IMG/VR virus record: IMGVR_UViG_3300031857_000295
Span: 1-50,422 of that record
From: a virus
Direction: 5' to 3' (one strand)
DNA: 50,422 nt
Under the pieces are notes generated by a model. It had not been told where the DNA came from. It saw only the letters and a program-made list of their open reading frames with translations, and made no database searches. The translations under genes were made by a program, and so were the position numbers. Shown piece after piece: positions 1-44,863 of this stretch. Positions within the stretch are counted from its first letter, which is position 1; every line of letters begins with the position of its first letter.

Positions 1-352
1 TGGTGTACGACATGGCGCGAGCCAATGCCTTCGTGTAACGCGACGACAGCGAGTCGTACAAGTTATCTTCAATCGCTTCTTCCGTGAGCGAGAACCCGAG
101 GGCAATCGTTTCGTGGTTGTAGCGAGCTGTGAAGACTTCTTGACCGTTGTCGTATGCGATGGCCGAACCTTCGTTCTTGACTGGAGCAGCCGAGAAACCA
201 GAAAGCTTCGTTTCTTCTTCGAACGAACGCTCAGAAGTTTCCGTTTCGTAGATTTCTTTGTGCTCTTCGCCGTAACGTGCATACTCAAGGCCGAACAAAG
301 CGTTCAGTCCGGGCAACAGTTCTTTAAGAAGTTGTGCGCGTGAAATTGCCAT
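1..352 (-). CDS. Major capsid protein, N-terminal part (cut by window start)
   Basis: Only about 117 N-terminal residues are visible; the frame stays open to position 1, so the gene continues outside. The product begins MAISRAQLLKELLPGLNALF and goes on with an acidic segment and the stretch ARYNHETIALGFSLTEEAIE. I recognise this as the start of a major capsid protein family common in environmental phages. It would form the icosahedral shell after assembly on the scaffold encoded upstream. The ATG lies 8 nt after AAGGAG. Its place directly after the decoration-protein gene and downstream of scaffold, GroES and portal agrees with the call. The family assignment is from memory, and the fold cannot be checked from this fragment. 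Confidence 0.82.
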   Translation of the reverse strand, partial: MAISRAQLLKELLPGLNALFGLEYARYGEEHKEIYETETSERSFEEETKLSGFSAAPVKNEGSAIAYDNGQEVFTARYNHETIALGFSLTEEAIEDNLYDSLSSRYTKALARAMSYT

Positions 353-364: not shown

Positions 365-982
365 TTATGCCAGACCGGTTGGGTTGAGGTAGCTGTGGGT
401 GCCTTGGTTCCACTTGACGATAACTTCGGTGTAAGAACCGGGGTTACCTGCCAAAGCAGTCTCAGGAACAACGTCCACAACGCGGATTGGCCACGTCGAA
501 GTAGTACCTTCGGTCGAGTCTACACCGACCTTAGAGTTACCGTTCGAAGTTGAACCTACGTTGTTTGCGCCGTTTGCCAGCTTGAGGTTCGAACCAACAG
601 CAGCCTGTGTTACATAGCTGACGGTGTTCGAGTTGGTACCAGCGCATACAGCAACCTTAAACAGCGCATCAGGGTCTTCCTGAATGTAAGCTGTGATGTC
701 ACTGATGTTTGTGGTGCCGGGGTAGTACTGACGGAATGTCAGACCGAAGGTTGGGTCCGTGTAGGTGCAACCGAGGAAAACACCAACAGGGGTGGCCGAG
801 TCTGTACCAGTGTCCTTGCCAACAGTACCGCCTGCGAGCAACTTAACGACGTCACCGTAGAAGATGGCAGTCGAAGAGTTGGTTGCGATTGGGAGTTGAC
901 GAGTAGCACCAGCAAAAACCTGTCCGCCAATCAGATTGATTGGGATTAGCCCGTAAGGGCTGGTAACAGAAGGGTATGCCAT
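365..982 (-). CDS. Head decoration-like protein (205 aa)
   Basis: The product is rich in Gly, Thr, Ser and Val with almost no charged helices, as expected for a beta-rich capsid surface protein. It opens MAYPSVTSPYGLIPINLIGG, a start I associate with decoration or head-stabilising proteins encoded next to the capsid gene in environmental phages. It has no signal peptide or membrane segment. The ATG follows AAAGGAG by 8 nt. It lies 12 nt upstream of the capsid gene and 16 nt downstream of the 158-aa gene, in one leftward operon. A role in binding the outer capsid is inferred from composition and position. It could instead be another minor head protein. Confidence 0.6.
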   Translation of the reverse strand: MAYPSVTSPYGLIPINLIGGQVFAGATRQLPIATNSSTAIFYGDVVKLLAGGTVGKDTGTDSATPVGVFLGCTYTDPTFGLTFRQYYPGTTNISDITAYIQEDPDALFKVAVCAGTNSNTVSYVTQAAVGSNLKLANGANNVGSTSNGNSKVGVDSTEGTTSTWPIRVVDVVPETALAGNPGSYTEVIVKWNQGTHSYLNPTGLA

Positions 983-998
983 TTTATAGCTCCTTTAG

Positions 999-1475
999 CT
1001 ATTTGCCTTTGCCAAATGACGTCGTAGACCGTTTTTCCCTAAAGAGTGGCATACGAGCGTCGTTTTCACGCATGAAGTTGTTATCCACGGACTCCATCTG
1101 AGCCTGATTTTTGTTAGCGAAAAATTCTTTACGCTGACGCATCAGTTCTTCCGGTGCCTTGCACAACAACAGTCCTGCGACTTCGATGTTGTTTTTGAAA
1201 CGGCTATCTGGGTCTACCAGCATCTGGAACTGAGGTTGTTCTTCGATGCTTACTGGCTCCCAACCTTCCCGTAGTTTGGACGAGATATTGCGGGGGTCAT
1301 TTTGGCCCATTGAAGCTACACGTATCCAGCGATATGCGTAACCAGCTTCCTTGTCCGGTTCTGGCAGGGTCGATGCCGGTTGCCATACTTTTGGACGTTC
1401 AGCTTCTGCACGAGTTTCACGAGGGGCACGAGCTGAGCTCGATTTACCTTCTAGGGCGTCAATAATATCAGTCAT
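999..1475 (-). CDS. Conserved phage virion-operon protein, unknown function (158 aa)
   Basis: This soluble, charged protein has a disordered-looking N-terminus (residues 1-40, rich in Ala, Arg and Glu). The core holds the segments YRWIRVAS, REGWEPV and IEVAGLLLCK, and the tail contains VDNNFMRENDARMP. I recall similar proteins sitting between scaffold and capsid genes in other environmental phages, without an assigned role. There is no enzymatic motif, membrane helix or zinc site. Its ATG is just upstream of the scaffold gene's neighbour in the same operon, with GGAG 7 nt before the start. A structural or assembly function is likely from context only. Confidence 0.6.
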   Translation of the reverse strand: MTDIIDALEGKSSSARAPRETRAEAERPKVWQPASTLPEPDKEAGYAYRWIRVASMGQNDPRNISSKLREGWEPVSIEEQPQFQMLVDPDSRFKNNIEVAGLLLCKAPEELMRQRKEFFANKNQAQMESVDNNFMRENDARMPLFREKRSTTSFGKGK

Positions 1476-1476
1476 C

Positions 1477-2430
1477 TTATTTCTCCATTTTCACTAGTTC
1501 ACGGGCATATTGTTCAGGTGTTAAACCTAGACGTTTTGCAATTGCCAGTTGGGACTGTTTTAACACAATCTTTTTGGGGGACCGTGTACGTGAGGCCGGA
1601 GCAACGACCGATGACGCCTTTTGTTCGCGTGCAGTGGACTTGGTGTCGCCACTATCCATTTCATCTCCGAAGTAATCGGAGAAGCGACGGCGCATAGTTT
1701 TGTCTACAACGCCCCAATATTCGTCGGTGCCTGCAAACTGCGGGCCACGTTCATTTATGAGCCTCTGATGAAGCCCAAGAGCAGTTGCGGTCATCTCCGG
1801 GTCGGAACCATACCACGTATTACGCTCTTGCCACGCAATAGTTTTCTGGTCCAGCTGCGGAGTTTGCACCTGCTGTTGCGGTATTTCTACCGGAACATCT
1901 TCCCTCTGTAAAGTAGGGCGGTAATTATTTATTTGCTGCATGCGGTAGTTGACTTCAGCAAGCTTCTGTTGCGCGTCTGCGAGACGGTCTGCATCACCAG
2001 ACTCGTACGCTTCCTTGAACTCACGCTTAGCCGCTGCAGCTTCCATTTCCGCAGTATACTTATAGCTGCCCATCAAGGACTGTTCGCCCTGTGCTAGCGT
2101 GCTTTTCAGCCTGCGGTTTTCTTCGAGGATACGCTGTGCAACAGAAAGAGCTTCTGTCTTTTCGCGCATCTCACGTTCTTTTTCACGACGTTCATCGTGC
2201 CAGACCTTCTTCATCTGCTTTAGACGGGTCTTTACCTTGTCGGAGTATTCTTCAAGCTCATCAGCTTCTAGCTCTTCAACAAGTGCCTTTGGCATGGGCT
2301 CACGGCCACGGTCTGCCTCCGGCGTATCATCTTCAATTTCAATTTCGGGCTTGTCGGCTCCAGAAACGGGGGTTTCGTCTTCGACTTCAAACGAGAAATC
2401 GTCGAAGTCGTCATCATTCTGCATACTCAT
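1477..2430 (-). CDS. Probable scaffolding protein (317 aa)
   Basis: The N-terminal 50 residues are strongly acidic (runs of Asp and Glu). Residues of roughly 60-190 form a long charged coiled-coil-like helix with many Glu, Lys and Arg. The C-terminal 60 residues are basic and end in a helical LGLTPEQYARELVKMEK. An acidic extended helical body with a basic C-terminal helix that binds coat protein is the usual design of internal scaffolds. I chose the ATG at 2430 because AGGAG lies 6-7 nt before it; an in-frame start 34 codons upstream would run back into the GroES gene and lacks such a site. It is encoded between co-chaperonin and capsid genes. Scaffold is inferred from architecture and synteny rather than from a signature motif. 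Confidence 0.65.
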   Translation of the reverse strand: MSMQNDDDFDDFSFEVEDETPVSGADKPEIEIEDDTPEADRGREPMPKALVEELEADELEEYSDKVKTRLKQMKKVWHDERREKEREMREKTEALSVAQRILEENRRLKSTLAQGEQSLMGSYKYTAEMEAAAAKREFKEAYESGDADRLADAQQKLAEVNYRMQQINNYRPTLQREDVPVEIPQQQVQTPQLDQKTIAWQERNTWYGSDPEMTATALGLHQRLINERGPQFAGTDEYWGVVDKTMRRRFSDYFGDEMDSGDTKSTAREQKASSVVAPASRTRSPKKIVLKQSQLAIAKRLGLTPEQYARELVKMEK

Positions 2431-2458
2431 ATTATTCTCCTTGTACGAATTACGTCCG

Positions 2459-2899
2459 TTAAGCGCGGGAAATGCCCCGAGGGTCTTCAACAACACCTTC
2501 GACACTGTCGTCGTTAATGATGCGGAACTCACGACCGTGGATTTTCACACGGCTACCTGCCATTGGGCGGGTCAGAATGAAGTCACCTTCTTGGCACCAT
2601 GGGCCAGACGGGAAGCGTTTCTCGTCCTTGTAGCAATCAGGGCCGAGCTTCAGCACCATAAGCACTGGAGTGGTAAGTTCTTCATACTGCTTGGTAGAGT
2701 CGGCCTTGAAGATACCACCAGCTGTCTTCTCTTCGACTTCTGGGATAGCGCACAATATGCGATAGCCTGATGGGTCTGGAAGCTGCTTAGCTTTCTTCTC
2801 GTCGGTGTCGGGTAGGACTGTTGCGTCCTCAATGTTGTTTACGTCCGAAGCCAGAAAAATCTCTGGCAGGGTCGGGAGAGTATTGTCCTCTTCAGTCAT
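2459..2899 (-). CDS. GroES-type co-chaperonin (Cpn10-like, 146 aa)
   Basis: Residues 44-140 read as a GroES barrel. There is an opening strand (YRILCAIPEVEEKT), a mobile loop with GGIF at 61-64 where host GroES has GGIV or a similar hydrophobic tripeptide, and later strands including VLMVLKLGPDCY, EGDFILTRP and FRIINDDSVEGVVE. The protein would cap the host GroEL ring and help fold phage proteins, most likely the capsid protein, like T4 gp31. About 43 extra N-terminal residues, acidic and probably flexible, precede the barrel. No GroEL gene is present in the window. The start overlaps the end of the 64-aa gene by 8 nt, and the gene sits between portal and scaffold. The fold call is fairly firm; the client is inferred. 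Confidence 0.8.
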   Translation of the reverse strand: MTEEDNTLPTLPEIFLASDVNNIEDATVLPDTDEKKAKQLPDPSGYRILCAIPEVEEKTAGGIFKADSTKQYEELTTPVLMVLKLGPDCYKDEKRFPSGPWCQEGDFILTRPMAGSRVKIHGREFRIINDDSVEGVVEDPRGISRA

Positions 2900-3086
2900 C
2901 GTCTTGTTCCATTCTTTGTGCGGCTTCAGCCATGAAACCGTTTGAAATCATAAGCCCACGGATAATCCCGCAAGCGTATTTGTAGTCCCCATGGTCCTTT
3001 GCAGTTCCACGGGCGAGGTCGCCGCTAAGTACGTCAATCTCGTCTTGTACCTTTTTTGACAGGTACATCAGTAACTCATTGGTCAT
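2892..3086 (-). CDS. Small conserved head-operon protein (64 aa)
   Basis: This helical, soluble protein of 64 residues contains DEIDVLSGDLARGTAKD and ends in an acidic MEQDDD. It has no cysteine pairs or membrane segment. I do not recognise a named domain. The start overlaps the portal stop as ATGA, and its end overlaps the GroES start, so the three are translationally coupled. Coupling to portal and chaperone suggests a role in head assembly, but nothing in the residues proves it. Confidence 0.6.
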   Translation of the reverse strand: MTNELLMYLSKKVQDEIDVLSGDLARGTAKDHGDYKYACGIIRGLMISNGFMAEAAQRMEQDDD

Positions 3087-5572
3087 TCATTCTCCTTGGT
3101 CGTTGCTTCGTTGGGAACGGGTTGTGGTTGTGCCGACTGCGCGGCCTCGCGGGCAATTTCGATACCCATACGAAGTCCGGCTTCCTGCTGTTTTGCCGAC
3201 AAGTTAGCCTTGTCTGTGGCAACTTTTGCGCCGACCTGTAGGCCAGCGATTTCTTGTTGTGACGCGATGCGCTTGTTCTCAAGCTCAAGGCGGTCGTTCT
3301 TTTCCGCAGCGTCAATAAGCATCTTCTGCTTCTTAAGCTCGAGCTCACCCTGCTTAATCTGAAGCTCCTGCTGCTGCATCTGTATGATGGGGTCTTGAGC
3401 CATCTGCTGCGCCTGCTGCTGTTGAGCCTCGGCTTGGTTCTTCTGGAGTAGCTGCTGAGCTGCTTGTGCAGCCAGACGGGAGACAGCCAACTCGGTGTTC
3501 TCGTCCATCTCAGCGTTGGGTGGTGGTAGCGGCACGCCAGCCTGTTCTTCGACCTGCTTGCGGTACGCAAACGCAAGGTGTTCTTGGATGTGTGCGGCTG
3601 CTGCGGCCATCATAGCCTGCGCGTTGGGGTTCTGACCCATGAGTTGAGCTATCTTGGGGTCTTGCATAGCAGCCATATGGACTGCGATGTGCGCTTCGTG
3701 GTCTTGGTAGATAAACGCCTTGACCGGCTTACCGTTCATAACGTCCATGTTCTCAGACACAGGGTCACGTGGCTTCATGTCGTCGCCGTCCTTGAGCGGT
3801 ACGAGCTTCTGGGCGTTCTTGATACCCAGCACCTCAAGCATCTGGCGATGCAGGTATGGCAGGTCATAAATCTGCGGAGCACCTTGGGCCAACTGAATGA
3901 CAGCCTGATACTGTACAATCTTCTGCGCCATAGTGGCGGCGTTAGGGTCAGATACCGGAATAACCTCGACATTGTCGTAGTCAGACTTCTTGGCCCTGCG
4001 ACCACCTTCTTCTGGCTCGTAGCTGTACGTATCTGGTGTGTAGTCGCGGATGATACCCTTGAGGAGCTGGAACTCCCGCTTCATCGCGTAGTGGACGCGT
4101 GCCTGCACGGCACTCATCATCTTCAACGTACGCTCGAGAATAGCCAGCGTGGTACCCACAGGAGCCTGTGCAGACATGTCAGACACCTTCATGTCCGCCA
4201 TACCCGCGAAGCGACGACCTTCGTCTACGATGGTCCCGAGGAGGCTGTAGAGCACTTGGCTTGGCTCTTTGTACGGCAGCGGCATGATATTGTCGCGCAT
4301 CGTACCCGACGCTACGTCCACATCGCGCCATTCAGCGGGGCTTATCGGGGTGTCGTCACCCTTGACGCGCAAGCCCTTAGTTTTAAATCCACCCGGTAGA
4401 TTAGATAGAGTACCAGCATCAACAAGCTGACGAATAAGGCTGGTACCAGACTTAGCAAAAGCACCAATAAGGTGAATAAGGCCAAAAGCGTAGAAGCCAA
4501 AGCCCGGAACGTACGAGTAATGTACGAAGTGGTTGCGCTTAAGCTTTTTCTTGTCATCGGGGTTCCAGTTACGGCGAATGGATAGGACCGTTTCGGTCTC
4601 TTTATCTATGGTAATGACGTATGGGAGTGCAATTCCAAGGTCATTTTCTTCCTTGTCGCGGTATTTATCGTCCTCAATGACGATATCTACGTGCATTTCC
4701 AGCAGTTTGTACCGGTCATCGGTCTCTGCACGGAAGCCCAGCTGCTCCGAAATCTTCTGCTCTACCTCATCCATCGAATTGACGGGGTCTGGTAGGTCTA
4801 CATCACGGTAAAACCCGTTTGCTTGGAGCTTTTTGAGCTCGTTCGGGGTTTTCCGCATCACATGGGTGACGCGTTCAGCGACTTCCAAGCTGGACGCGCC
4901 ATAAGGCACAACTACGTCTTCCGCAGTTACATACATAGATACCTGACGACCGAGTGATGGGTCAAAGTACACCTTCTTGAACGAGTTACCTGCAAGGCCC
5001 AACCCCCACAGCATCCGCTCATGTTCAGGGCGATACTCGACCATCACGTCGGTCAACTGGTAATTCATATCTTCTTGGACGCGCTGAGCAGCGTCCTTCT
5101 TCTCTGTGGTCTCTTTGCCGATTATCTGCGTACGCACCGGCCCTTGGGCTGGGAATGTCTCGCTCATGGTCTCAGCTTGGAACTTAACTACAGCTTCAGC
5201 CAGCAACGGGTGATGCACACCACATGCACCGGGCCAAGGCTCCGTGCGGTCCTCAACCTTCATGCCCAACAGCTCAAGCCCGTCTACATAAGTCTGTATC
5301 CAGTCCTTGCGGCTGCTGATATCTTCTTCAAACTCACCGATAAGGTCGCCAGCAAGCTCAGCGAGCATGCCCTCGTCCATATCTTCGGCCAAGTTCTCGT
5401 TAAAGTCGCCCTCGTCCTCACTCGGGTCAATCTCAATCTCCATCCCGTCGAGGCCAATACTGACGCTCTCAGGGTCTTCAATCTCAATCTCGATGTCAGG
5501 ACCGTCATCCAGCTCCGTCATCATCGGAGACATGCCCAGCGGGGCTTGGTTAAGCGACTTGTCGATGTCCAT
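3083..5572 (-). CDS. Portal protein (829 aa)
   Basis: This is the dodecameric channel at the capsid vertex through which DNA enters and leaves. The first 85 residues are very acidic. The core holds DWIQTYVDGLELLGMK, a region with PWPGACGVHHPLLAEAVVKFQ, and GLAGNSFKKVYFDP followed by VSMYVTAEDVVVPYG, patterns I associate with large P22-like portals. The C-terminal third has a long helical region rich in Gln and Ala (roughly residues 690-790), compatible with a barrel extension. At 829 residues it is longer than P22 portal (725). It starts immediately after the stop of the 90-aa gene, with only a weak purine-rich site, so translation is probably coupled. Neighbours are the terminase genes upstream and GroES and scaffold downstream. 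Confidence 0.85.
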   Translation of the reverse strand: MDIDKSLNQAPLGMSPMMTELDDGPDIEIEIEDPESVSIGLDGMEIEIDPSEDEGDFNENLAEDMDEGMLAELAGDLIGEFEEDISSRKDWIQTYVDGLELLGMKVEDRTEPWPGACGVHHPLLAEAVVKFQAETMSETFPAQGPVRTQIIGKETTEKKDAAQRVQEDMNYQLTDVMVEYRPEHERMLWGLGLAGNSFKKVYFDPSLGRQVSMYVTAEDVVVPYGASSLEVAERVTHVMRKTPNELKKLQANGFYRDVDLPDPVNSMDEVEQKISEQLGFRAETDDRYKLLEMHVDIVIEDDKYRDKEENDLGIALPYVITIDKETETVLSIRRNWNPDDKKKLKRNHFVHYSYVPGFGFYAFGLIHLIGAFAKSGTSLIRQLVDAGTLSNLPGGFKTKGLRVKGDDTPISPAEWRDVDVASGTMRDNIMPLPYKEPSQVLYSLLGTIVDEGRRFAGMADMKVSDMSAQAPVGTTLAILERTLKMMSAVQARVHYAMKREFQLLKGIIRDYTPDTYSYEPEEGGRRAKKSDYDNVEVIPVSDPNAATMAQKIVQYQAVIQLAQGAPQIYDLPYLHRQMLEVLGIKNAQKLVPLKDGDDMKPRDPVSENMDVMNGKPVKAFIYQDHEAHIAVHMAAMQDPKIAQLMGQNPNAQAMMAAAAAHIQEHLAFAYRKQVEEQAGVPLPPPNAEMDENTELAVSRLAAQAAQQLLQKNQAEAQQQQAQQMAQDPIIQMQQQELQIKQGELELKKQKMLIDAAEKNDRLELENKRIASQQEIAGLQVGAKVATDKANLSAKQQEAGLRMGIEIAREAAQSAQPQPVPNEATTKENE

Positions 5573-5845
5573 TTACTTGGCTTTCTTCACAGCGGCCTTA
5601 ACCACTGTCTTTGCTACTGCCGCCATGGGGGCGACTGCCACTGCTACTTCAGCTACGTCCTCGATAATGTCGAACACGTTCTTTTTCTTGGGTTTTGCTT
5701 CAGGCTGCGTCTGGTTCGCGCTTAGGAAAGCGTCGTTATACGGTAGACCTGCAGCGCGTGCTTCGTTGAACGCCGTACGCTGGTCGTCAGACCATTTTGA
5801 CCATTGAGTTTTGCCGATAGGAAAAAGTGCCTTAACGTTTGCCAT
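5573..5845 (-). CDS. Small protein with hydrophobic C-terminal helix (90 aa)
   Basis: The N-terminal half is soluble and ends in a PKPKKKNVF-type basic hinge. Residues 56-85 form an Ala/Val-rich hydrophobic stretch interrupted by acidic residues and followed by Lys (KAAVKKAK). The stretch could be an amphipathic or membrane-inserting helix. The start overlaps the terminase stop as TAATG. Its position between large terminase and portal is typical of small virion or connector proteins. A holin-like protein cannot be excluded, but the helix is poor for a full membrane span. No family is recognised. Confidence 0.55.
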   Translation of the reverse strand: MANVKALFPIGKTQWSKWSDDQRTAFNEARAAGLPYNDAFLSANQTQPEAKPKKKNVFDIIEDVAEVAVAVAPMAAVAKTVVKAAVKKAK

Positions 5846-7362
5846 TAGTAATACCCCTGATTGCGATTTGACCTAAAGTACACGATATCTTCGGGCTCGT
5901 CTAGGTTAGTAGTCACGTAGCCCCCACGCCTGAACCTATGCAAGGCCATGGATACTGTATCAACATAGTCATCGTTTGAGCCAGCGGGAAATTCTGCCAC
6001 TTCGTCGATGACTTCTTCCGCCCAGCGCGTGCCCGGTGCCCATACCCGACCTGATGCGAATATGTCTGCAACACCGTTGAGACGGGAAATCTTGTCGTTA
6101 CCCCGTGTCGGGGTAAACTCTTGCACCGGTATGCCCATAGCCCGCATCTCGTAGATGAGCGGTGCACCTGACGCCTTTTTCTCGATTATCACGCCGTCTG
6201 GCTGCCACTCTTTATACTCTTCGACAGCCACACGCTTCAACTCCGGGAACTCCATGCGGTCCCTGAAGGCATTAAGTAGTATGATGTTGGCCTGCGTTAT
6301 CCCATTGTCATCCGGGTGGTAGAACACACCCCATGTAGTGCACGCACTGTAGTCAGCTCGGCTCGTCTTCTCGAACGCCGTATCCCACACCTGCAGCACA
6401 AAGTCACAGCTGGGCGGGTCATCACTCTCCCACTCCTGCCACCACTCTCTCTTAACAATCGCCGCAGACTCGGACACCGGGTTCTGCTGGTACTGCGCCA
6501 TCCACTTGCTGTTAGGGACGTCGCGCTTAACTTTTTCTAATTCTTCAAGCTGCCAGAACTCAGGCCACAGCGGGTTGCCGCTGGGTAAAATGGCTGGAAA
6601 TTCAATGACTTCCCACTCACCGAGGCTGTCATTAGCAGCTGCATCTTTTAATATCTGCCCGGTCAGGTCGCGCTTTGACCACCGCGTCATCACAACAATA
6701 ATGGCACCGCCCGGCTGGAGACGCTGACGTGGACCAGAGGTGTACCACTCATATGCCTTGTCGTAGATATCTGGGTTAACTTCCGCGATAGCAGCTTCTT
6801 GCTCTGAGTGCGGGTCATCAATGATAAGCACGTCAGCACCTTTACCAGTAACCGCACCGCCCACACCGATAGCGAAGTAATCTCCGCCCTTGCTGGTGTT
6901 CCACCGACCAGCCGCCTTAGAGTCTGCAGCTAGCTTCAGGTCAGGAAACGTCTCGTGATATACTTCTGTATCTACAAGGTTACGAACCTTACGGCCAAAA
7001 CCTACCGCGAGTTCACCCGTGTGCGAGCACTGGATAATCTTCTTATGGGGGTTGAGTCCGAGGAACCATGCAGGGAGCAGGTAAGAGGCGAACTCCGACT
7101 TCGTGTGTCGCGGTGGCATATTAATAATGAGGCGTTTACACTCACCACGAGCAACGCGTTCGAAGGCGTCTGCCATTTTCGCATGGTGCCTACCTCCTAT
7201 GAATGTCGGCCAAACTTGTTCTACGAACTTCAGGAACCGCTTGCGCGCCAACTCCTGCGTCTTGAGCTTCTCCAGCTTGTCTAACTCAGCGAGCAGTATC
7301 TCTTGCTCGGCTGCGGTCAGCTTGGGCAGTATCTTGGGTATGTCTTTGAGCGTGATGTTCAC
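5845..7362 (-). CDS. terL: Terminase large subunit (505 aa)
   Basis: This is the ATP-driven DNA-packaging motor and nuclease. The N-terminal ATPase shows a Walker A-type loop MPPRHTKS at residues 82-89, Walker B LIIDD at 179-183 and a coupling motif VMTRWSK at 224-230. The C-terminal RNase H-like nuclease shows WDTAF with Asp327, IIEKKASG with Glu394, and NDDYVD with acidic residues at 464-468. These are the expected metal-binding positions. The length is normal for the family. The start is GTG at 7362, overlapping the small-subunit stop as GTGA. It acts at the portal encoded two genes downstream. Confidence 0.92.
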   Translation of the reverse strand: MNITLKDIPKILPKLTAAEQEILLAELDKLEKLKTQELARKRFLKFVEQVWPTFIGGRHHAKMADAFERVARGECKRLIINMPPRHTKSEFASYLLPAWFLGLNPHKKIIQCSHTGELAVGFGRKVRNLVDTEVYHETFPDLKLAADSKAAGRWNTSKGGDYFAIGVGGAVTGKGADVLIIDDPHSEQEAAIAEVNPDIYDKAYEWYTSGPRQRLQPGGAIIVVMTRWSKRDLTGQILKDAAANDSLGEWEVIEFPAILPSGNPLWPEFWQLEELEKVKRDVPNSKWMAQYQQNPVSESAAIVKREWWQEWESDDPPSCDFVLQVWDTAFEKTSRADYSACTTWGVFYHPDDNGITQANIILLNAFRDRMEFPELKRVAVEEYKEWQPDGVIIEKKASGAPLIYEMRAMGIPVQEFTPTRGNDKISRLNGVADIFASGRVWAPGTRWAEEVIDEVAEFPAGSNDDYVDTVSMALHRFRRGGYVTTNLDEPEDIVYFRSNRNQGYY

Positions 7363-7973
7363 TCGTCCACCTCTTCGGTGGACTCATCCGCCAAGATTTC
7401 TTCGAAGTCCGCATCGAGGATGCCTAGCTCCTCGTCGAGGTCCATGCCCAGTGGCTTCATATCTATGACGTCTGCGTTCAGCAGGCGCTTGACCCTGTCC
7501 GTAATGGCCTTTTCCAGACCTTCAGGTGAGTTGTAGTTGACGTTAATCTCACTACGGTCGGTGAATAGCCCGACATCTGAGTGCTTACCAAGCAGCTCAA
7601 TGGCCTTCAACTCGTACTTAATCTCACCACAGTCAGCAATCTCAAGCAGTTTATTAGTCAGCGCAGTGCGCACTTGACCCGCGTCCATCGCTCGGCCTTG
7701 GCCATAAGCACGTAGGAAAGCCGCAGCGCCGAGGGCAGCAGGCAGACTTTGGGTCAATGGTGTTATTTTCTGGTTGTCGATGGCTGCATCTAGCAATGCT
7801 GCCTCTTCTTCGACGTTGTCCTTAGCCAACTCGACTGGGGCACCAAGCTGCTCAAGCAGCTCTGCTGTATTACCTATGGAGGCTAATTTATCCGCGAAGT
7901 TGTCAAACTCCTCGTCGGACAGGTCAAACGGCACAGGATACTCCGTGCTCGGTTCGGCTTTTATAATAGGCAT
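7359..7973 (-). CDS. terS: Probable terminase small subunit (204 aa)
   Basis: The assignment rests mainly on position: first gene of the packaging operon, coupled by GTGA to terL. The protein is helical and acidic. A central segment (GAAAFLRAYGQGRAMDAGQVRTAL) is followed by NKLLEIADCGEIKYELKAIELLGKHSDVGLFTDRSEINVNY, which resembles the part of small terminases where a helical DNA-binding or oligomerisation region precedes a conserved GLFTDRSE-like stretch. The C-terminal 30 residues are very acidic. I chose the ATG at 7973 (MPIIKAEPS) because GGAG lies 9 nt upstream. A longer frame to 8081 would add a hydrophobic, unlikely N-terminus. It would recognise the packaging site. Confidence 0.68.
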   Translation of the reverse strand: MPIIKAEPSTEYPVPFDLSDEEFDNFADKLASIGNTAELLEQLGAPVELAKDNVEEEAALLDAAIDNQKITPLTQSLPAALGAAAFLRAYGQGRAMDAGQVRTALTNKLLEIADCGEIKYELKAIELLGKHSDVGLFTDRSEINVNYNSPEGLEKAITDRVKRLLNADVIDMKPLGMDLDEELGILDADFEEILADESTEEVDE

Positions 7974-8118
7974 GTACTTAAGCTCCGCTTGTAGGAGTCC
8001 GGGGTTGCGCCGTTGTGTAGCAATGTAGTGGGGAGAAGAAAAGAGGAAAATAGGGGCGGCGCAAACTGAGGAAAACACCACCCCTACCGGTACCGCAATG
8101 TCAAATATCGGTTCAAAA

Positions 8119-8146: not shown

Positions 8147-8349
8147 GGTACCATCGACGGGGGGTCTGGCTGTATTAAGCGGCAGCGAACCGGTGGCTGG
8201 AAAAATAGGGGGGTGGGGGTGCTTGATTTGAAAAGAGGGCCGGGGGGTGTTCTGGTTTTCAAAAGTGCGTCGTCGAATATGCAAAATAGTATGTATGTAG
8301 TGGTGGGGTAACAACATGCCACCGTTGGGGGGTCGGGGGTAGGTAGGGT
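8147..8349. other. G-rich non-coding tract next to terS
   Basis: The plus strand carries repeated G-runs. A GGGGGTCTGGC motif occurs twice, near 8128-8138 and 8159-8169. Further runs are G6 at 8208-8213, G5 at 8215-8219, G3 at 8237-8239, G6 at 8242-8247, G6 at 8327-8332 and G5 at 8335-8339. GGGTAACA-like words recur near 8316 and 8346. A frame on the minus strand across it gives only a Pro/His-rich, improbable peptide. The tract could fold as G-quadruplex DNA or mark the packaging (cos or pac) site, since it adjoins terS. Both are guesses. Confidence 0.5.
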
Positions 8350-8475
8350 AACAGTATAGTCAATCCGTCACACCCTCCCCCTGTTAATCTACACTCCACT
8401 TCACTAATACTTAACCCTAACAAATGTCTGCGAAGCAGACCGATTTTATTTTCTAGGCTGCGCTTGCCTCGCGCT
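8350..8475. other. Non-coding spacer with one small hairpin
   Basis: I see no credible reading frame here. A short hairpin, GTCTGC-GAA-GCAGAC (8426-8440), is followed by a T-rich stretch on the plus strand. Its 6-bp stem is weak, and no gene ends close upstream on that strand, so I do not call it a terminator. Confidence 0.4.
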
Positions 8476-8529
8476 ATGCCTTAACTGGCGTTAGGCTCTG
8501 CCATGTCTTAACTGTGGTTAAGCTCTCCC
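8476..8529. repeat. Two tandem 27-bp units, each with a palindromic core (possible operators)
   Basis: Units 8476-8502 and 8503-8529 align without gaps at 22 of 27 positions. Each has the core TTAACTG-NN-GTTA. The second core is CTTAACTGTGGTTAAG at 8507-8522, an inverted repeat of CTTAAC and GTTAAG arms. Further copies lie at 10281-10298 and 13286-13301. The pair ends 21 bp before the -35 element of the promoter for the 8638 gene, a location suited to an activator or a cooperative repressor. The cognate protein is unknown. Confidence 0.6.
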
Positions 8530-8550
8530 GTTTTAATTCGCTAAGTCGAT

Positions 8551-8579
8551 TTGGTCTAAGCGTCTATCTGGTCTATATA
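8551..8579 (+). promoter_or_regulatory. Rightward promoter of the 8638 gene
   Basis: TTGGTC (8551-8556) and TATATA (8574-8579) are separated by 17 nt. The twelve bases TTTGGTCTAAGC at 8550-8561 recur exactly at 13193-13204, where the same 17-nt spacing leads to TATAAC. The shared layout supports both sites being promoters. The leader to the ATG at 8638 would be about 50 nt. Confidence 0.5.
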
Positions 8580-8637
8580 TAAATCACTGGCGGGGAAGTC
8601 CTGCCAGATACACTTAAACGAATGGAATAAACACTTT

Positions 8638-9492
8638 ATGACTAATGTATCTCTTATTGCTTCCGGTATCGAACAACATCGTGACGGAACGGCGCAAGCG
8701 CAAGCGGGTATTGCTAACATCTCGCAAGGTATCATGGATAACTGGTTCTACTCAATGCGCTGGTCGTATGGTTCGGGTGATAACGAAGTGTCCGGCGTTT
8801 CCAATCTCGGCGATATGTTCAAGCACAAGTCGAACGGCAACGATGGCGCTGACTCCAAGTATCTTCCCGCTATGTATCGGGCGGTTGCGGATAACTTCGG
8901 TATTGAAGGCGCTATGTCCTCGGCTGATAAGATGGCGTTTCAACGTGCGTTCACTATTGCTGCGGCTCGGTTCGCTGAGGTTCCCGTTGAAATTGTCCAA
9001 GCTAACGTCAAGCGCAAGGGTAAGACTGTTAAGATTGCTGCGGTTCAAGTGCCTGCTTCGGTCGCGTATGATTTGGCTGACGATAACGGCGCTCCTAATG
9101 ATTTAGGGCGCGAGCTTATGGAACGGGTAAAGTCTAATCTTGAATTGCAATCGGCTGTTGTGCCTGACGATGCCAAGCTATTCGAGCAAGCTCAAGCCCT
9201 CAAGGTCAACTGCGTTGGCGGTCAACATCCAGTATTCGGCAAGGTTCCGTCTGCCACCGACATTGCTAACAGGTTGCATCCTTCGGCTGTTGGTGCTGGT
9301 GTCATGCAAGCTAAGGGTAACAGGTCTAAGCCAGTCAATGCCGACAAGTTCGGCGAGTCTCTAGAGTTTGTGACTAAGTGCTTAGACGAAGTGCTAGGCG
9401 ATAATGACGAAGCTGGGTTTGCTCCATCAACTGCGGTTGAAGACAAGCTGCGCGCTCTGGCTGAAAAGATTGCTGCCTATTTCGCAGCGTGA
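8638..9492 (+). CDS. Unknown protein encoded by an isolated transcription unit (284 aa)
   Basis: I do not recognise this family. The protein is soluble, Ala-rich and probably mixed alpha/beta. It has no nucleotide-binding loop, zinc site or membrane segment. Visible blocks are DNWFYSMRWSYGSGDNE (residues 33-49), a basic patch QANVKRKGKTVKIAAVQVP near residues 121-139, and a helical C-terminus ending EKIAAYFAA. The gene stands alone. It has its own promoter and tandem palindromes upstream, and a strong UUCG-loop terminator 33 nt downstream. Such wiring suggests heavy, separately timed expression. It faces the structural operon across the control region and precedes the candidate origin. Roles in host takeover, DNA binding or anti-defence are possible but unproven. 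Confidence 0.8.
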   Translation: MTNVSLIASGIEQHRDGTAQAQAGIANISQGIMDNWFYSMRWSYGSGDNEVSGVSNLGDMFKHKSNGNDGADSKYLPAMYRAVADNFGIEGAMSSADKMAFQRAFTIAAARFAEVPVEIVQANVKRKGKTVKIAAVQVPASVAYDLADDNGAPNDLGRELMERVKSNLELQSAVVPDDAKLFEQAQALKVNCVGGQHPVFGKVPSATDIANRLHPSAVGAGVMQAKGNRSKPVNADKFGESLEFVTKCLDEVLGDNDEAGFAPSTAVEDKLRALAEKIAAYFAA

Positions 9493-9525
9493 TTAACTGG
9501 CGGGGGCTGCGGCTCCCGCCTTCCG

Positions 9526-9556
9526 CCTCGCGGCCTTCGGGTCGCGGGGTTTTTTT
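9526..9556 (+). terminator. Rho-independent terminator after the 8638 gene
   Basis: A 10-bp stem pairs 9526-9535 with 9540-9549 (with wobble pairs) around a TTCG tetraloop and is followed directly by seven T (9550-9556). A C(UUCG)G loop and U-tract are the textbook form. It isolates the upstream gene from the candidate origin. Confidence 0.88.
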
Positions 9557-9568
9557 GCGTCCGCGTCG

Positions 9569-9611
9569 GGGCGCGGATTTTTCCGCGCCCTTTGTCCCCG
9601 AAGGGGACAAA
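9569..9611. other. Two further perfect hairpins behind the terminator
   Basis: A 9-bp stem joins 9569-9577 to 9582-9590 with a T4 loop. The next 9-bp stem joins 9591-9599 (TTTGTCCCC) to 9603-9611 with a GAA loop. They abut each other and follow the terminator by 12 nt. They may be back-up termination or RNA-end protection structures. On the minus strand the outer stem would not be followed by a T-run. Confidence 0.6.
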
Positions 9612-9652
9612 CAAACAAATTAACGCCAATCGAAGATTGTCATAATTAATCT

Positions 9653-9730
9653 ATGATAGAAGTGATGATAGTCACCAATGATAGTGTTCTACCTATGATA
9701 GTCACTTATCCATGATAGTTGCGGTGATAG
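9653..9730 (+). repeat. Iteron-like ATGATAG repeats
   Basis: ATGATAG occurs at 9653, 9665, 9678, 9695 and 9712, and a sixth shorter copy TGATAG lies at 9725. Spacings are 12, 13, 17, 17 and about 12 bp. Two copies extend to ATGATAGTCAC. All are in the same orientation in a gene-free region, which is the arrangement of initiator-binding iterons. Confidence 0.65.
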
Positions 9731-9735
9731 TAAGG

Positions 9736-9783
9736 GCTAACTGGTTGGGTGAGCGCCTGAGCTAACTGGTTGGGTGAGCGCCT
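9736..9783 (+). repeat. Direct repeat of 23 bp, two copies
   Basis: The 23-bp unit at 9736-9758, starting GCTAACTGG and ending GAGCGCCT, is repeated exactly at 9761-9783 after two bases. It follows the ATGATAG array and precedes a long palindrome. Confidence 0.8.
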
Positions 9784-9787
9784 CGAC

Positions 9788-9811
9788 CGTTAGGTTGAAC
9801 TCAACCTAACG
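9788..9811. repeat. Perfect 24-bp palindromic site with 11-bp arms
   Basis: Arm CGTTAGGTTGA (9788-9798) is mirrored by TCAACCTAACG (9801-9811) with AC between. No T-run follows, so it is not a terminator. It may be a protein-binding or cruciform site in the candidate origin. Confidence 0.8.
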
Positions 9812-10200
9812 TCCAAAATGGGCAAAGTCAACAAGAAAATGCAAAGTAGGCAAAATAATGCAAAGTTATGGTGCGGCTTTAAAACAATAACTTTAGTTTT
9901 CCTTATTTTTCAATGGTTTACACCCCTATTGTAGAAAGTTATAAAGTTATTGGGTTGTGAAGCCGGATTTTGATTTTTGACAGTGCGCATCTGTCCGACC
10001 CCTTCTATGCAGTGCGAAGGGCAAAAAGTGCCGGGCTCTCTATTTTCCCTACTACATTATAACTTTAAAACTATACTATACTACTACCCCCAAAAACTCC
10101 CACACTTCTGCGCCTCTCCAGCCATCCTCATATTGTTAGAAAACCAATGAGGGACTTCTAACATTACACAAAGTCCTACAATACCAAATCCCACCCTCAT
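9812..10200. other. AT-rich non-coding tract, candidate DNA-unwinding part of an origin
   Basis: No credible gene is seen. Repeated AAAGTTAT and TATAACTTTA words occur around 9860-10075. A nested inverted repeat lies at 10134-10163 (TGTTAGAA with TTCTAACA). GAGGGACTT occurs twice, near 10149-10158 and 10209-10218. Together with the iterons, direct repeats and palindrome just upstream, the tract looks like a replication origin, but no initiator site has been proven. Confidence 0.45.
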
Positions 10201-10229
10201 TTGACATAAGAGGGACTTTATGCTAATTT
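10201..10229 (+). promoter_or_regulatory. Strong rightward promoter for the early operon
   Basis: A perfect TTGACA (10201-10206) is followed after 17 nt by TAATTT (10224-10229), with TG one base upstream of the -10 (extended -10). It would start transcription near 10236, about 76 nt before the first early gene at 10312. It is the closest match to consensus on the plus strand. Confidence 0.62.
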
Positions 10230-10280
10230 AAATAATCGGCAGGACGTCGATGACCCCGCACACCAGTGCAAACACAAAAC

Positions 10281-10298
10281 GCTTAACTGGAGTTAAGC
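10281..10298. promoter_or_regulatory. Palindromic site directly before the first early ribosome site
   Basis: GCTTAACTGGAGTTAAGC has 8-bp arms with a 2-bp centre. It ends exactly where AAGGAGCAA (10299-10307) begins. As DNA it matches the core of the tandem units at 8476-8529. As RNA it would form a hairpin touching the ribosome site of the 10312 gene, so either transcriptional or translational control is possible. Confidence 0.6.
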
Positions 10299-10311
10299 AA
10301 GGAGCAACACA

Positions 10312-13191: not shown

Positions 13192-13193
13192 GT

Positions 13194-13222
13194 TTGGTCT
13201 AAGCAGCTACCTGTGGTATAAC
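13194..13222 (+). promoter_or_regulatory. Promoter of the AAA+/VWA cassette
   Basis: TTGGTC (13194-13199) and TATAAC (13217-13222) are 17 nt apart. The context TTTGGTCTAAGC is identical to that of the promoter at 8551-8579. A leader of about 90 nt follows, carrying a CTTAAC/GTTAAG palindrome. Confidence 0.52.
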
Positions 13223-23170: not shown

Positions 23171-23653
23171 ATGAGTATGAGAAAGAAAGTCATAGCAGGG
23201 AACGTTATAAAGCTGCTTAAGCAGGGCTATTCGCCCAAGGAAGTTACCCAGCGTATGGCGGTAAGCTACAACTACGCATGGAAGTTGAAGAAAGATTTAG
23301 AGAAAGCGGCGAAAGAAGCCGTAGCTGAAGTCAAAGAATGGGTCGAAGAGAAAGTCGAACCCAAACCCGAACCCGAAGTCAGTGGGGTGGGTAAGGTGCT
23401 AGACGCAAGGGCGGAACAATATGGTTCGTTCATGCAGTCTTCGGATACGGTTATCAGGATTAAGAGCATTCTACACAATGTGGTGGCTCGTAACGAAGTG
23501 CTCCTATACCCTGACCAGCTACAGGCGTTGGATATGATTGCGACCAAGATAAGTCGCATCGTGCATGGCAACCCAAACCACCTAGATAGCTGGATTGATA
23601 TAGCCGGATATGCTACGTTAGTGGCCGACCGTCTCCAAGGGAAAATCAGATAA
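23171..23653 (+). CDS. HTH plus DUF6378-like protein (160 aa)
   Basis: The N-terminal 45 residues form a helix-turn-helix (NVIKLLKQGYSPKEVTQRMA, then KLKKDLEK). A Lys/Glu/Pro-rich linker follows. The C-terminal 85 residues begin LDARAEQYGSFMQSSDTVIR and include HLDSWIDIAGYATLVADRL, which I recognise as a DUF6378-type helical domain found in many phage early regions. The domain has no firmly known function. Fusion to an HTH points to a DNA-directed role. AAGGAGCAAATGAA precedes the ATG. Confidence 0.65.
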   Translation: MSMRKKVIAGNVIKLLKQGYSPKEVTQRMAVSYNYAWKLKKDLEKAAKEAVAEVKEWVEEKVEPKPEPEVSGVGKVLDARAEQYGSFMQSSDTVIRIKSILHNVVARNEVLLYPDQLQALDMIATKISRIVHGNPNHLDSWIDIAGYATLVADRLQGKIR

Positions 23654-23654
23654 C

Positions 23655-24326
23655 ATGACAGCGTGGTCCTATAGTAGCATCAAGACCTTCGACCAGTGTC
23701 CGAAGAAGTACTTTCACCTCAAGGTGATTAAGGACGTAAAGGACGACCCCGGCGAAGCAGCTATCTATGGGACCAACGCGCATGAAGCAGCCGAGCACTA
23801 CATCAAGCACGGTACTCCTATACCAGAGAAGTTCAGCATCATGCGGCCCGTCGTGGAAGTGCTGGCCCAGTTTCCGGGCGAGAAGCACACCGAGCTGAAG
23901 CTAGGCGTAAAGAAAACGGGTACTGGCTACGAACCATGCGGCTTCTTCGATAAGGACGTATGGTGGCGCGGCATCGTCGATTTGCTCATCACAAACGGCA
24001 CAACTGCCCACATGGTAGATTACAAGACCGGCAAGAACGCTAAGTATGCGGACATGAAGCAGCTGGACCTGATGGCTGGTGCAGTGTTCGTGCACTACCC
24101 AGAGATAACCAAGGTTAAGTCGGGGCTGGCGTTTGTGGTGTCCAACGAGTTTCCTAAGAAGACCCACAAGCGTGAGCACTTGGATACGTACCTATCTGTG
24201 TTTGATAATCAGCTAGAACAGCTTGAGGCCAGCATGGATAATGGTGTATGGAACGCAAAGACCAGCCCGTTATGTGGTTGGTGCCCAGTTAAAAGCTGTG
24301 AGCATTGGAAACCACGGAGGCATTGA
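23655..24326 (+). CDS. Cas4/RecB-like PD-(D/E)XK exonuclease with Fe-S cysteines (223 aa)
   Basis: Key residues are His43, Glu80, Asp109 (GIVDLL), the Asp122-Tyr-Lys124 of VDYKTG and Gln136, a full PD-(D/E)XK set. Four cysteines at 15, 207, 210 and 215 are placed to hold a 4Fe-4S cluster joining both ends, as in Cas4 and AddB-type nucleases. Such phage enzymes process DNA ends in recombination. The gene lies between the DUF6378-like and HNH-like genes and ahead of the SNF2-like helicase. Its stop shares a base with the next ATG. There is no CRISPR locus, so Cas4 refers to fold only. Confidence 0.82.
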   Translation: MTAWSYSSIKTFDQCPKKYFHLKVIKDVKDDPGEAAIYGTNAHEAAEHYIKHGTPIPEKFSIMRPVVEVLAQFPGEKHTELKLGVKKTGTGYEPCGFFDKDVWWRGIVDLLITNGTTAHMVDYKTGKNAKYADMKQLDLMAGAVFVHYPEITKVKSGLAFVVSNEFPKKTHKREHLDTYLSVFDNQLEQLEASMDNGVWNAKTSPLCGWCPVKSCEHWKPRRH

Positions 24327-24604
24327 TGGCAAGGGATTACAAAGCCGAGTACGATAAATACCACGCTCGCCCAGAGCAGAAGAAGAACCGTGCTTCGCGC
24401 AATGCGGCCCGTGCCAAGATGACTAAAGCCGGTAAGGTGCACAAGGGCGATGGTAAAGACGTTGCCCACGTAAAAGCATTCGACAAAGGTGGTTCCAATA
24501 AGACGGGACTGCGTGTAGAAAGTAAGGCCGCTAATCGGTCGTTCCTCCGTGATAAGAAGGGTAACCTCGTGTCGGAGCGCAGCAAACGGGAACGCAAGAA
24601 GTAA
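24326..24604 (+). CDS. HNH-like small basic protein (92 aa)
   Basis: The N-terminal half is very basic (KKNRASRNAARAKMTKAGKVHKGDGKD). It is followed by DVAHVKAFDKGGSNKTGLRV and SKAANRSF, the pattern of a compact HNH nuclease in which the usual Asp-His pair reads Ala-His. The change may weaken or remove activity, or the protein may be a DNA-binding relative. ATG 24326 gives a TGATG junction with the nuclease gene; CGGAGG lies 8 nt before. Confidence 0.6.
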   Translation: MARDYKAEYDKYHARPEQKKNRASRNAARAKMTKAGKVHKGDGKDVAHVKAFDKGGSNKTGLRVESKAANRSFLRDKKGNLVSERSKRERKK

Positions 24605-24620
24605 CCACGAAGGAGCAATC

Positions 24621-26165
24621 GTGCAGATAATTGATAACAAGGCGCTGCTAATTACAGCGCCGAACGCACATACTATACCCCAATACATTACAAAGAGCGC
24701 CGTGGTTGAAGGTGGAGCCGTAGCCGTACACTGGGGGCTACACGAGGCTACGCGCTTAGCTCAGCTTGGTTATGACGGCGTGCCGTCCCCTATGCTCCGC
24801 GACTACCAGTGGACTGGTAAGTATGCGCCGTTCGACCACCAGAAAGAGACAGCTTCGTTCTTGTCTATCCGCAAACGCGCCTTCTGCTTCAACGAGCAGG
24901 GCACAGGCAAGACGGCTAGCGTCATATGGACGGCTGACTACCTGATGAAGAAGGGCAAGATTAAGCGCGTACTGGTGCTATGCCCATTGTCGATTATGAA
25001 GTCGGCTTGGCAGCGCGACCTATTCACCTTCGCTATGCACCGCTCGTGCAGCGTTGCGCACGGTGCAGCCCCACAACGCAAGAAGATTATCGAAGCAGGG
25101 GCAGAGTTCGTCATCATTAACTTCGACGGTCTAGCTATCGTCAAGGACGAGATAATTGCAGGTGGCTTCGACCTTATCGTGGTGGACGAGGCGAACGCAT
25201 ATAAGAACGTGCAGACCAACCGCTGGAAGATTTTTAGCCAGATTGTGAACCTCACTGACCCACGGCTTTGGATGATGACAGGTACACCCGCTGCGCAGTC
25301 TCCCATAGATGCGTATGGCTTAGCTAAGCTGGTTAACCCAGAAGGTTGCCCTAAATACTACACCGAGTTCCGAGCTTCTATCATGCACAAGGTGACCCAC
25401 TTTAAATGGGCACCGAAACCACACGCAGCTGAGTACGTGCATAACATATTGCAGCCAGCCATCCGGTTCGAAAAGAAAGACTGCTTGGACCTACCCGAAG
25501 TTACGCACGTGTCGCGTGACGCACCGCTGACAACACAGCAGAGCAAGTACTACAAGATGCTCAAGGACCAGCTGCTGATTGAGACGGGCGGCGAGGAAGT
25601 CAGTGCGGTCAACGCAGCTACGCAGATAAACAAGCTGCTGCAGATAAGTGGAGGCGCGGTCTATACGGATACTGGCGAGGTGCTGGAGTTCGATGTGTCT
25701 AACCGGGTTAACGTCGTACTCGAAGTCATAGAGGAGGCCAGCAACAAGGTGCTGGTCTTCGTGCCGTTCACGCACACTATTGAGATACTTCGCGCTAGGC
25801 TGGAGAAGGAAGGCATCTCGTGTGGCGTCATCAACGGCAAAGTATCACTGAATAAGCGCAGCGACATCATCGAGCGGTTCCAGACGAGCAAAGACCCACA
25901 TGTGCTTATCATCCAGCCACAGGCTGCATCGCACGGTCTGACTCTAACGGAGGCGGATACAATCATCTGGTATGCGCCAGTAACCAGCGTGGAAACATAC
26001 TTGCAGGCTAACGCCCGTATCGACCGTCCCGGCCAGAAGAACGCCATGACCATCGTGCATATCAAGGGCAGTCCGGTAGAGGAGCGGCTGTATAGTATGC
26101 TCCAGAATAATATCACCAACCACAAAAAACTTATTGACTTGTATAAGGAAGTTATGGAAATATAG
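24621..26165 (+). CDS. SNF2-like superfamily 2 helicase/translocase (514 aa)
   Basis: Domain 1 has Walker A in NEQGTGKT (91-98), DEAN at 189-192 in place of DEAH, and TGTP at 220-223. Domain 2 has VFVPFTHTIEIL and the arginine-finger motif QANARIDRPGQ near residues 460-470. This fits the SNF2/DEAD family that translocates on DNA in phage replication or recombination. GTG 24621 is preferred because AAGGAGCAATC precedes it and because upstream codons lie inside the HNH-like gene. It ends with 75 nt before the next gene, where a promoter-like site sits. Confidence 0.87.
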   Translation: MQIIDNKALLITAPNAHTIPQYITKSAVVEGGAVAVHWGLHEATRLAQLGYDGVPSPMLRDYQWTGKYAPFDHQKETASFLSIRKRAFCFNEQGTGKTASVIWTADYLMKKGKIKRVLVLCPLSIMKSAWQRDLFTFAMHRSCSVAHGAAPQRKKIIEAGAEFVIINFDGLAIVKDEIIAGGFDLIVVDEANAYKNVQTNRWKIFSQIVNLTDPRLWMMTGTPAAQSPIDAYGLAKLVNPEGCPKYYTEFRASIMHKVTHFKWAPKPHAAEYVHNILQPAIRFEKKDCLDLPEVTHVSRDAPLTTQQSKYYKMLKDQLLIETGGEEVSAVNAATQINKLLQISGGAVYTDTGEVLEFDVSNRVNVVLEVIEEASNKVLVFVPFTHTIEILRARLEKEGISCGVINGKVSLNKRSDIIERFQTSKDPHVLIIQPQAASHGLTLTEADTIIWYAPVTSVETYLQANARIDRPGQKNAMTIVHIKGSPVEERLYSMLQNNITNHKKLIDLYKEVMEI

Positions 26166-26642: not shown

Positions 26643-26650
26643 GAGAAACA

Positions 26651-30959: not shown

Positions 30960-30994
30960 CCCCCGCTGGCGCTACTCCCCGGCGGGGGTTTTTT
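30960..30994 (+). terminator. Rho-independent terminator of the rightward operon
   Basis: A 10-bp stem pairs 30960-30969 with 30979-30988 (one G-T pair) around a 9-nt loop and is followed by six T (30989-30994). It ends at the stop codon of the convergent 2315-aa gene. On the minus strand no T-run follows, so it works mainly rightward. Confidence 0.85.
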
Positions 30995-37940: not shown

Positions 37941-37951
37941 CTTGGGTACTC

Positions 37952-39535: not shown

Positions 39536-39546
39536 CTTATATCTCC

Positions 39547-41553: not shown

Positions 41554-41556
41554 AAC

Positions 41557-44855: not shown

Positions 44856-44863
44856 CTCGTATC

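What the first reader, a model, noticed from the sequence alone, without database searches (positions are those of the whole stretch)
8550..9611. Isolated, strongly bounded transcription unit for an unknown 284-aa protein
The gene at 8638-9492 has its own promoter, tandem palindromes upstream and a perfect UUCG terminator followed by two more 9-bp hairpins. No other early gene is isolated in this way. The protein resembles nothing I know. Such a unit often encodes an abundant, early, host-directed protein.
Basis: partly seen in the sequence, partly recalled or inferred. Interest (0 to 1): 0.66.

Follow-up and report, generated by a model that had tools for sequence, protein, structure and literature searches.

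The report
Phage gene in a counter-defence slot
A bacterial virus carries, in its own well-insulated transcription unit, a gene for an unnamed kind of protein that sits exactly where closely related viruses carry other, dissimilar proteins, one of them a known anti-restriction protein, so it is probably a tool against host defences.

Summary
The 284-aa gene (8638-9492 +) lies between the window's two largest gaps, with a conserved promoter (TTTGGTCTAAGC-N12-TATATA, 8550-8579), a covarying hairpin at the predicted 5' end of the mRNA, and a UUCG terminator within a stack of four hairpins. The same promoter recurs once, before the replication operon. The protein matches nothing in Pfam, PHROGs, NCBIfam, PADLOC or PDB; relatives are 14 IMG/VR contigs and two remote ones. 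It is neither the capsid protein nor ArdC.

New result: the gene fills a positional slot. In 33 of 35 related loci with enough sequence an ORF lies on the same strand at that place, but these proteins fall into six BLAST clusters plus five singletons, even where TerL is 90-96% identical, while the TerL-adjacent gene stays one family. Four loci carry ArdC anti-restriction proteins there. Best reading: an interchangeable, host-directed, probably counter-defence gene. Function is untested. Main rivals: other host takeover, origin-linked replication protein, DNA-binding protein.

The parts
8426..8440 (+). small hairpin (6 bp) followed by a T-rich stretch, upstream of the unit; possible terminator shielding the unit from upstream transcription
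   Evidence: dG -7.6, z -3.45; similar in close relatives, not as a hairpin in L013, L045, L046
8480..8522 (.). two tandem palindromes of the type CTTAACNNNNGTTAAG (8480-8495, 8507-8522); candidate operators
   Evidence: 12 sites in window against 1.8 expected; one or two copies in most relatives
8550..8579 (+). promoter: TTTGGTCTAAGC (8550-8561), 12 bp, TATATA (8574-8579)
   Evidence: conserved in all 12 distinct upstream regions, 3 with one mismatch; exact first element occurs only twice in the window
8587..8607 (+). 8-bp hairpin at the predicted 5' end of the mRNA
   Evidence: dG -14.6, z -3.29; covarying pairs in an alignment of 10
8638..9492 (+). gene for the 284-aa protein (slot protein, family 0)
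   Evidence: single copy in each of 14 records
9499..9520 (+). 9-bp GC-rich hairpin shortly after the stop codon; stems differ but a hairpin recurs in relatives
9525..9550 (+). intrinsic terminator, 11-bp stem with UUCG loop, then a T run
   Evidence: z -4.13; similar in most relatives
9568..9610 (+). two more hairpins, 10 bp (9568-9591) and 8 bp (9592-9610)
   Evidence: z -4.43
9649..9731 (.). cluster of TGATAG(T) repeats downstream of the unit, possible origin or regulator sites
13193..13222 (+). second copy of the same promoter motif, upstream of the ATPase/replication operon (13321 onward)
   Evidence: also present in relative G009

Best explanation
The gene is the occupant, in this phage lineage, of an exchangeable slot between the late block (terL side) and the replication block. 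It most likely encodes a host-directed counter-defence protein: the phage transcribes it alongside the replication genes from a dedicated promoter, the mRNA is protected at both ends by hairpins, and the product blunts a host defence (restriction is the first candidate, because ArdC fills the slot in related phages). Shown: the unit, its conservation, the slot, the swap between dissimilar proteins, ArdC in the slot. Inferred: time and level of expression, and the counter-defence function of this particular protein.
For: TerL scan: 80 loci with 74-98% TerL identity; 35 have at least 2.3 kb beyond the TerL start; in 33 of these a same-strand ORF of 121-311 aa was assigned at this position (L091 and L120 gave none; L106, L121, L137 are doubtful). 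The slot proteins form six multi-member BLAST clusters (28 loci) and five singletons. Control in the same 26 loci: the TerL-adjacent gene gives hits in 276 of 325 pairs and one cluster of 24; the slot protein 44 of 325 pairs and 8 clusters. For TerL pairs at 90-95% identity only 2 of 23 share the slot family; L079 (family 0) and L081 (family 1) differ although their TerL are 95.6% identical. Four slot proteins are ArdC-like: phrog_7245 'anti-restriction protein' E 1e-85 and 2.5e-86 for the two scanned, HExxH in all four, PDB ArdC 6i89/6sna E 8e-66 for the one searched. The other flank is homologous too: a relative of the window's DNA polymerase in 7 of 10 records, incl. the ArdC record G021 (71%) and the family-4 records G014 and G022 (69, 72%). 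No match to structural, replication or defence families.
Against: No direct evidence of function. ArdC is in only 4 of 33 loci; the scanned members of families 1, 3 and 5 have no family match and family 4 is phrog_2554 of unknown function. Family 0 is fairly well conserved (41-79% identity of distinct relatives to the window), which is slow for an arms-race protein. The slot is next to an origin-like region, so a replication role for its occupants is not excluded. ArdC itself binds DNA, so 'DNA protection' and 'replication' are not cleanly separable. The early regions of the ArdC and family-4 records lack the ATPase relative, so the slot is not the only thing that differs.
Confidence: 0.5

Rival explanations
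1. It acts against the host in another way (shut-off or takeover of host functions) rather than against a defence system.
For: Same slot and regulation evidence as the best explanation.
Against: The only slot occupant with a known activity is an anti-restriction protein.
Confidence: 0.2
2. It is a replication protein tied to a nearby origin: the downstream region carries TGATAG repeats and AT-rich inverted repeats, and the protein binds them or helps to open the origin.
For: Shares its promoter motif with the replication operon; repeats directly downstream; the analogous gap of KPP25 has three 49-nt repeats.
Against: The slot protein is replaced by dissimilar proteins, among them ArdC, while the polymerase stays 69-72% identical in the ArdC and family-4 records. 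TGATAG counts are 2-10 in the close relatives read, 2-3 in the remote family-0 members L108 and L138 and 0-3 in the other loci, so repeats and protein do not clearly move together.
Confidence: 0.15
3. It is an abundant nucleic-acid-binding protein (single-strand binding or nucleoid-like) that coats phage DNA.
For: Probably a well-protected transcript; promoter shared with replication genes.
Against: pI about 5.3 and no acidic tail; a better SSB candidate exists at 26639-27577 with an acidic C-terminus; dissimilar proteins fill the slot elsewhere.
Confidence: 0.08
4. It is a virion or injected protein made outside the late block.
For: ArdC-type proteins can travel with the DNA they protect (passages of PMC5512222).
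Against: Opposite strand to the structural genes; the major capsid protein is elsewhere.
Confidence: 0.07

Closest known systems
ArdC anti-restriction protein (PDB 6i89, 6sna; phrog_7245)
   Same: Fills the same slot, on the same strand, in four related phages (L098, L099, L111, L116); similar size (285-298 aa).
   Different: No meaningful sequence similarity (best blastp E 0.66 over 72 aa) and no HExxH motif in the 12 members of A7 or in L108 and L138.
Phage counter-defence hotspots (general kind; recalled, not searched to exhaustion)
   Same: A fixed genomic position at which related phages carry dissimilar, separately placed genes, at least one of known anti-restriction type.
   Different: Here the slot lies between terL and the replication block and most occupants are single genes of 160-311 aa of unknown function.
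ompA-type 5'-terminal stem-loop mRNA stabilisers (recalled; titles seen in the reference list of PMC3997798)
   Same: Hairpin begins at the predicted +1 and is kept by compensatory changes.
   Different: Transcription start not mapped, stability not measured.
Isolated ORFs of KPP25 (ORF028, 263 aa) and RHph_TM27A (EVB29_028, 242 aa)
   Same: Comparable place between late block and replication block, near a large gap.
   Different: No detectable sequence relation.

Membership tests
ArdC anti-restriction proteins | sequence similarity to ArdC over the whole chain | tested here: not met
   (blastp E 0.66, 72 aa, against the four slot ArdC proteins); no phrog_7245 match for the 284-aa protein
ArdC anti-restriction proteins | HExxH metallopeptidase motif | tested here: not met
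   0 of 12 members of A7, nor L108 or L138; present in 4 of 4 slot ArdC proteins
ArdC anti-restriction proteins | single-stranded DNA binding | not testable with these tools
   needs protein
Genes of a phage counter-defence slot | position at which related phages carry dissimilar, exchangeable genes while flanks are conserved | tested here: met
Genes of a phage counter-defence slot | at least one occupant of known anti-defence type | tested here: met
   ArdC-like in 4 of 33 loci
Genes of a phage counter-defence slot | this protein inhibits a defence system | not testable with these tools
   needs plating assays; no match in PADLOC, whose models are of defence systems
Major capsid protein | homology to the capsid protein of related phages | tested here: not met
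   capsid homologue lies at window 2-352 minus (cut by the contig end) and intact in G005 and G008
Phage single-strand DNA-binding proteins | acidic C-terminal tail | tested here: not met
   C-terminus reads AEKIAAYFAA; the 26639-27577 protein has such a tail
Phage single-strand DNA-binding proteins | OB fold | tested here: inconclusive
   no such match listed, best VIA Z under 6 for both models
Origin-binding replication initiator | protein family and iteron sequence change together | tested here: inconclusive
5'-terminal stem-loop stabilised mRNA | stable hairpin at the 5' end, kept by covariation | tested here: met
   position of +1 is predicted, not mapped
5'-terminal stem-loop stabilised mRNA | long mRNA half-life | not testable with these tools
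   needs RNA

The most novel reading that the evidence does not exclude
The slot is a dedicated counter-defence locus of a large, mostly uncultured phage group (at least 599 TerL-relative stretches in IMG/VR), and its occupants other than ArdC, the 284-aa family first, are several new families of anti-restriction or anti-defence proteins that can be found simply by reading this position.
Probability: 0.4. Interest if true: 0.75.

Novelty: new variant of a known kind. Interest (0 to 1): 0.57.

Why it matters
If right, one fixed position in a widespread group of mostly uncultured phages yields a list of candidate counter-defence proteins (six clusters in 33 loci, one of them ArdC), which can be tested one gene at a time. 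It also gives the 284-aa family, which no library names, a concrete and testable function.

Tried and rejected
Capsid protein: considered because of size, isolation and T-ending codons; rejected, the capsid homologue is elsewhere. SSB: weakened by the acidic-tail protein at 26639-27577. Relation to the isolated ORFs of KPP25 and RHph_TM27A: none found. Fold search: two models (pLDDT 78.8 and 81.8); no PDB match with E below 0.1, VIA Z at most 5.6 over 59 residues and 4.9 over 53. The only recurrent viral match, A0A218MLW3, an uncharacterised protein of an 'uncultured virus' (E 4-5e-3, prob 0.99, TM 0.34-0.36 by query length), could not be read. Roseophage SIO1 Gp5 (prob 0.11) was looked at and dismissed as chance. 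Filamentous-hemagglutinin PDB sequence hits (E 0.1) rose to E about 2 with the larger alignment. GTDB genome contigs: no relative; phage records and plasmids: no relative; two searches returned nothing even at E 10, which is odd for a chance level, so I lean on them lightly. Physical genome end near the gene: contigs G001, G010 and G011 begin in the G-rich stretch upstream, but G009 closes on itself by a 127-bp overlap, so an assembly break is the simpler reading. Rfam: none. High expression by codon usage: only weak support. Family 3 (L097, L102, L113) may be a distant branch of family 0 (hhalign E 0.0013 but probability 18; hmmsearch E 0.0014 for L102; L097 and L102 joined to family 0 by blastp in the smaller set); left open, and it would lower the number of separate families to five. 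Papers: PMC9599517, term search of the text, no occurrence; PMC10611076, PMC5512222 and PMC3997798, passages only (the last gave the ompA stem-loop papers only in its reference list; the stabilising effect itself is recalled); all others, search listings only. Searches for a published slot of this kind: no paper; four listings, none on this by title and abstract start; that is not proof of absence.

Full report
What the window is. The window is a 50,422-base virus record. Its terminase is 50-57% identical to those of phage DSL-LC04, 023Pt_psg01, the pelagiphages HTVC027P and HTVC023P and cyanobacterial phages; its polymerase is closest (37.5%) to that of Rhizobium phages such as RHph_TM27A. 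Late genes are on the minus strand (365-8081 and 30993-50372), replication genes on the plus strand (10312-30717). The capsid gene is cut by the left end of the record (2-352 minus), so the record is incomplete; the relative G009 closes on itself by a 127-bp overlap at about 62.2 kb.

The unit. The ORF 8638-9492 is bounded by the two largest gaps between main ORFs (556 and 819 bp; next 222). Alignment of upstream regions of the relatives shows one conserved promoter, TTTGGYCTAAG, 13 bases, TATA(A/T), with a 17-bp spacing if TTGGTC is read as the -35 element (9 of 12 exact, 3 with one mismatch in the first element). The exact motif occurs only twice in the window, here and at 13193, upstream of the ATPase gene; the relative G009 has the same two copies. 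The consensus scan did not list this promoter, so its -35 element is weak by sigma-70 standards; a phage or host activator is possible. About seven bases after TATATA an 8-bp hairpin begins (8587-8607; dG -14.6, z -3.29), so that the mRNA would start with a stem-loop; in an alignment of ten, three of seven consensus pairs are kept by changes on both sides in at least one sequence. After the stop codon follow a 9-bp hairpin, the UUCG terminator (z -4.13) and hairpins of 10 and 8 bp. In L004, L045 and L046 a short ORF follows the gene.

The protein. No match in PHROGs, Pfam, NCBIfam or PADLOC (in one search, for nine members, only matches of E 0.067 or worse), none of note among PDB sequences. 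Relatives: 14 IMG/VR contigs, none in GTDB genome contigs, phage records or plasmids. One copy per record in 14 of 14 records searched. AlphaFold models of 78.8 and 81.8 mean pLDDT, the last fifth uncertain, gave no solved neighbour and one reproducible but uncharacterised viral match.

The slot. A scan with the window's terminase gave 80 loci, capped, of 599 relatives. In 35 of them the sequence reaches at least 2.3 kb beyond the terminase start. In 33 I could assign an ORF on the strand opposite to terL at the place of the 284-aa gene (L106, L121 and L137 are doubtful). Two of these, L108 and L138, are remote members of the 284-aa family (E 2.7e-14 and 3.4e-15). Clustering by BLAST gave the 284-aa family (4 of these 33), a second family of 13, ArdC (4), and clusters of 3, 2 and 2, with five singletons. 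The ArdC assignment rests on phrog_7245 for L098 and L111, the HELVH motif in all four and PDB ArdC at E 8e-66 for L098; related proteins in named phages are annotated as antirestriction proteins.

Control. In the 26 loci for which both could be read, the gene beside terL gives a hit in 276 of 325 pairs (24 of 26 in one cluster); the slot protein in 44 of 325 (8 clusters). Among 27 loci, pairs with TerL identity of 90-95% share the slot family in 2 of 23 cases, those of 95% and more in 4 of 5, 85-90% in 21 of 117, 80-85% in 26 of 72, 75-80% in 30 of 132, 70-75% in 0 of 2. The far flank is homologous as well: ATPase relative in 6 of 13 records, polymerase relative in 7 of 10, the three misses being contigs of 13-25 kb. 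From the coordinates the ATPase gene lies roughly 2.4-4.5 kb, and the polymerase gene (in G014, G021 and G022) roughly 7-9 kb, downstream of the slot gene on the same strand; in the ArdC record G021 the slot is at about 31942-32799 minus and the polymerase at 23197-25041 minus. The ATPase relative is not found in the ArdC and family-4 records, so these early regions differ in part.

Interpretation. A position between conserved flanks at which closely related phages carry dissimilar single genes, one of them an anti-restriction protein, is what one expects of a gene that answers to the host rather than to the phage's own machinery. I therefore read the 284-aa protein as a host-directed, probably counter-defence protein (0.5). 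What is shown is the unit, the slot and the swaps; function, timing and amount are inferred. Codon usage does not strongly support high expression (rank 8 of 56 and 12 of 23 against the capsid gene). The origin rival keeps some weight because of the TGATAG repeats next door and the promoter shared with replication genes, but repeats and protein family do not clearly move together. The promoter motif was found upstream of the slot gene only in the closer family-0 loci among the 33 (L079 and L094), so regulation has changed with the slot content; a strong hairpin with T run within 260 bases downstream was found in 14 of 33 (some loci end too early to tell).

Novelty. The protein family is unnamed in every library searched. 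Exchangeable counter-defence positions are known as a kind (recalled); I found no paper on this one in two searches, which is weak evidence of absence. I rate it a new variant of a known kind.

Noticed in passing
window 13193-13222 and 8550-8579: Two-member promoter set TTTGGTCTAAGC-N12-TATA shared by the 284-aa gene and the ATPase/replication operon; also two copies in G009.
   Followed up: partly
window 8480-28630: Palindrome CTTAACNNNNGTTAAG (up to 2 mismatches) occurs 12 times (1.8 expected), only in the early half, twice just before a ribosome-binding site (10282, 13286); operators or RNA hairpins.
   Followed up: partly
window 9612-10311: Noncoding region with TGATAG repeats, inverted repeats and AT-rich stretch; candidate replication origin.
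   Followed up: partly
window 26639-27577: 312-aa protein with a Cys-rich motif and a long acidic C-terminus (ends GDDEEDDD): candidate single-strand DNA-binding protein; only PHROGs of unknown function match.
   Followed up: no
L081, L085, L088, L090, L133, L134, L144, L145, L148, L150, L151, L154, L157: A second slot family of 13 loci (160-260 aa); the three members scanned have no convincing library match; further counter-defence candidates.
   Followed up: no
L083 1965-2693 minus and L125 2443-3168 minus: Slot occupants with paired cysteines; L083 is phrog_2554; DSL-LC04 also has a phrog_2554 protein near its terL.
   Followed up: no
G024 contig 44265-46943 minus: DNA polymerase relative interrupted by an in-frame insert (917-aa open frame, matches 12-427 and 414-618): possible intein.
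   Followed up: no
G025 contig 4393-6219 minus: DNA polymerase relative with one internal TAG: pseudogene, error or recoding.
   Followed up: no
window 2459-2899 minus: GroES-like co-chaperonin in the late block, as in DSL-LC04 and HTVC027P.
   Followed up: no
window 30993-37940 minus: 2315-aa late protein without a Pfam match; RHph_TM27A has a reading frame of similar size after its replication block.
   Followed up: no
G001, G010, G011 starts (window about 8150-8200): Three IMG/VR contigs begin within the same G-rich intergenic stretch, probably an assembly break.
   Followed up: partly
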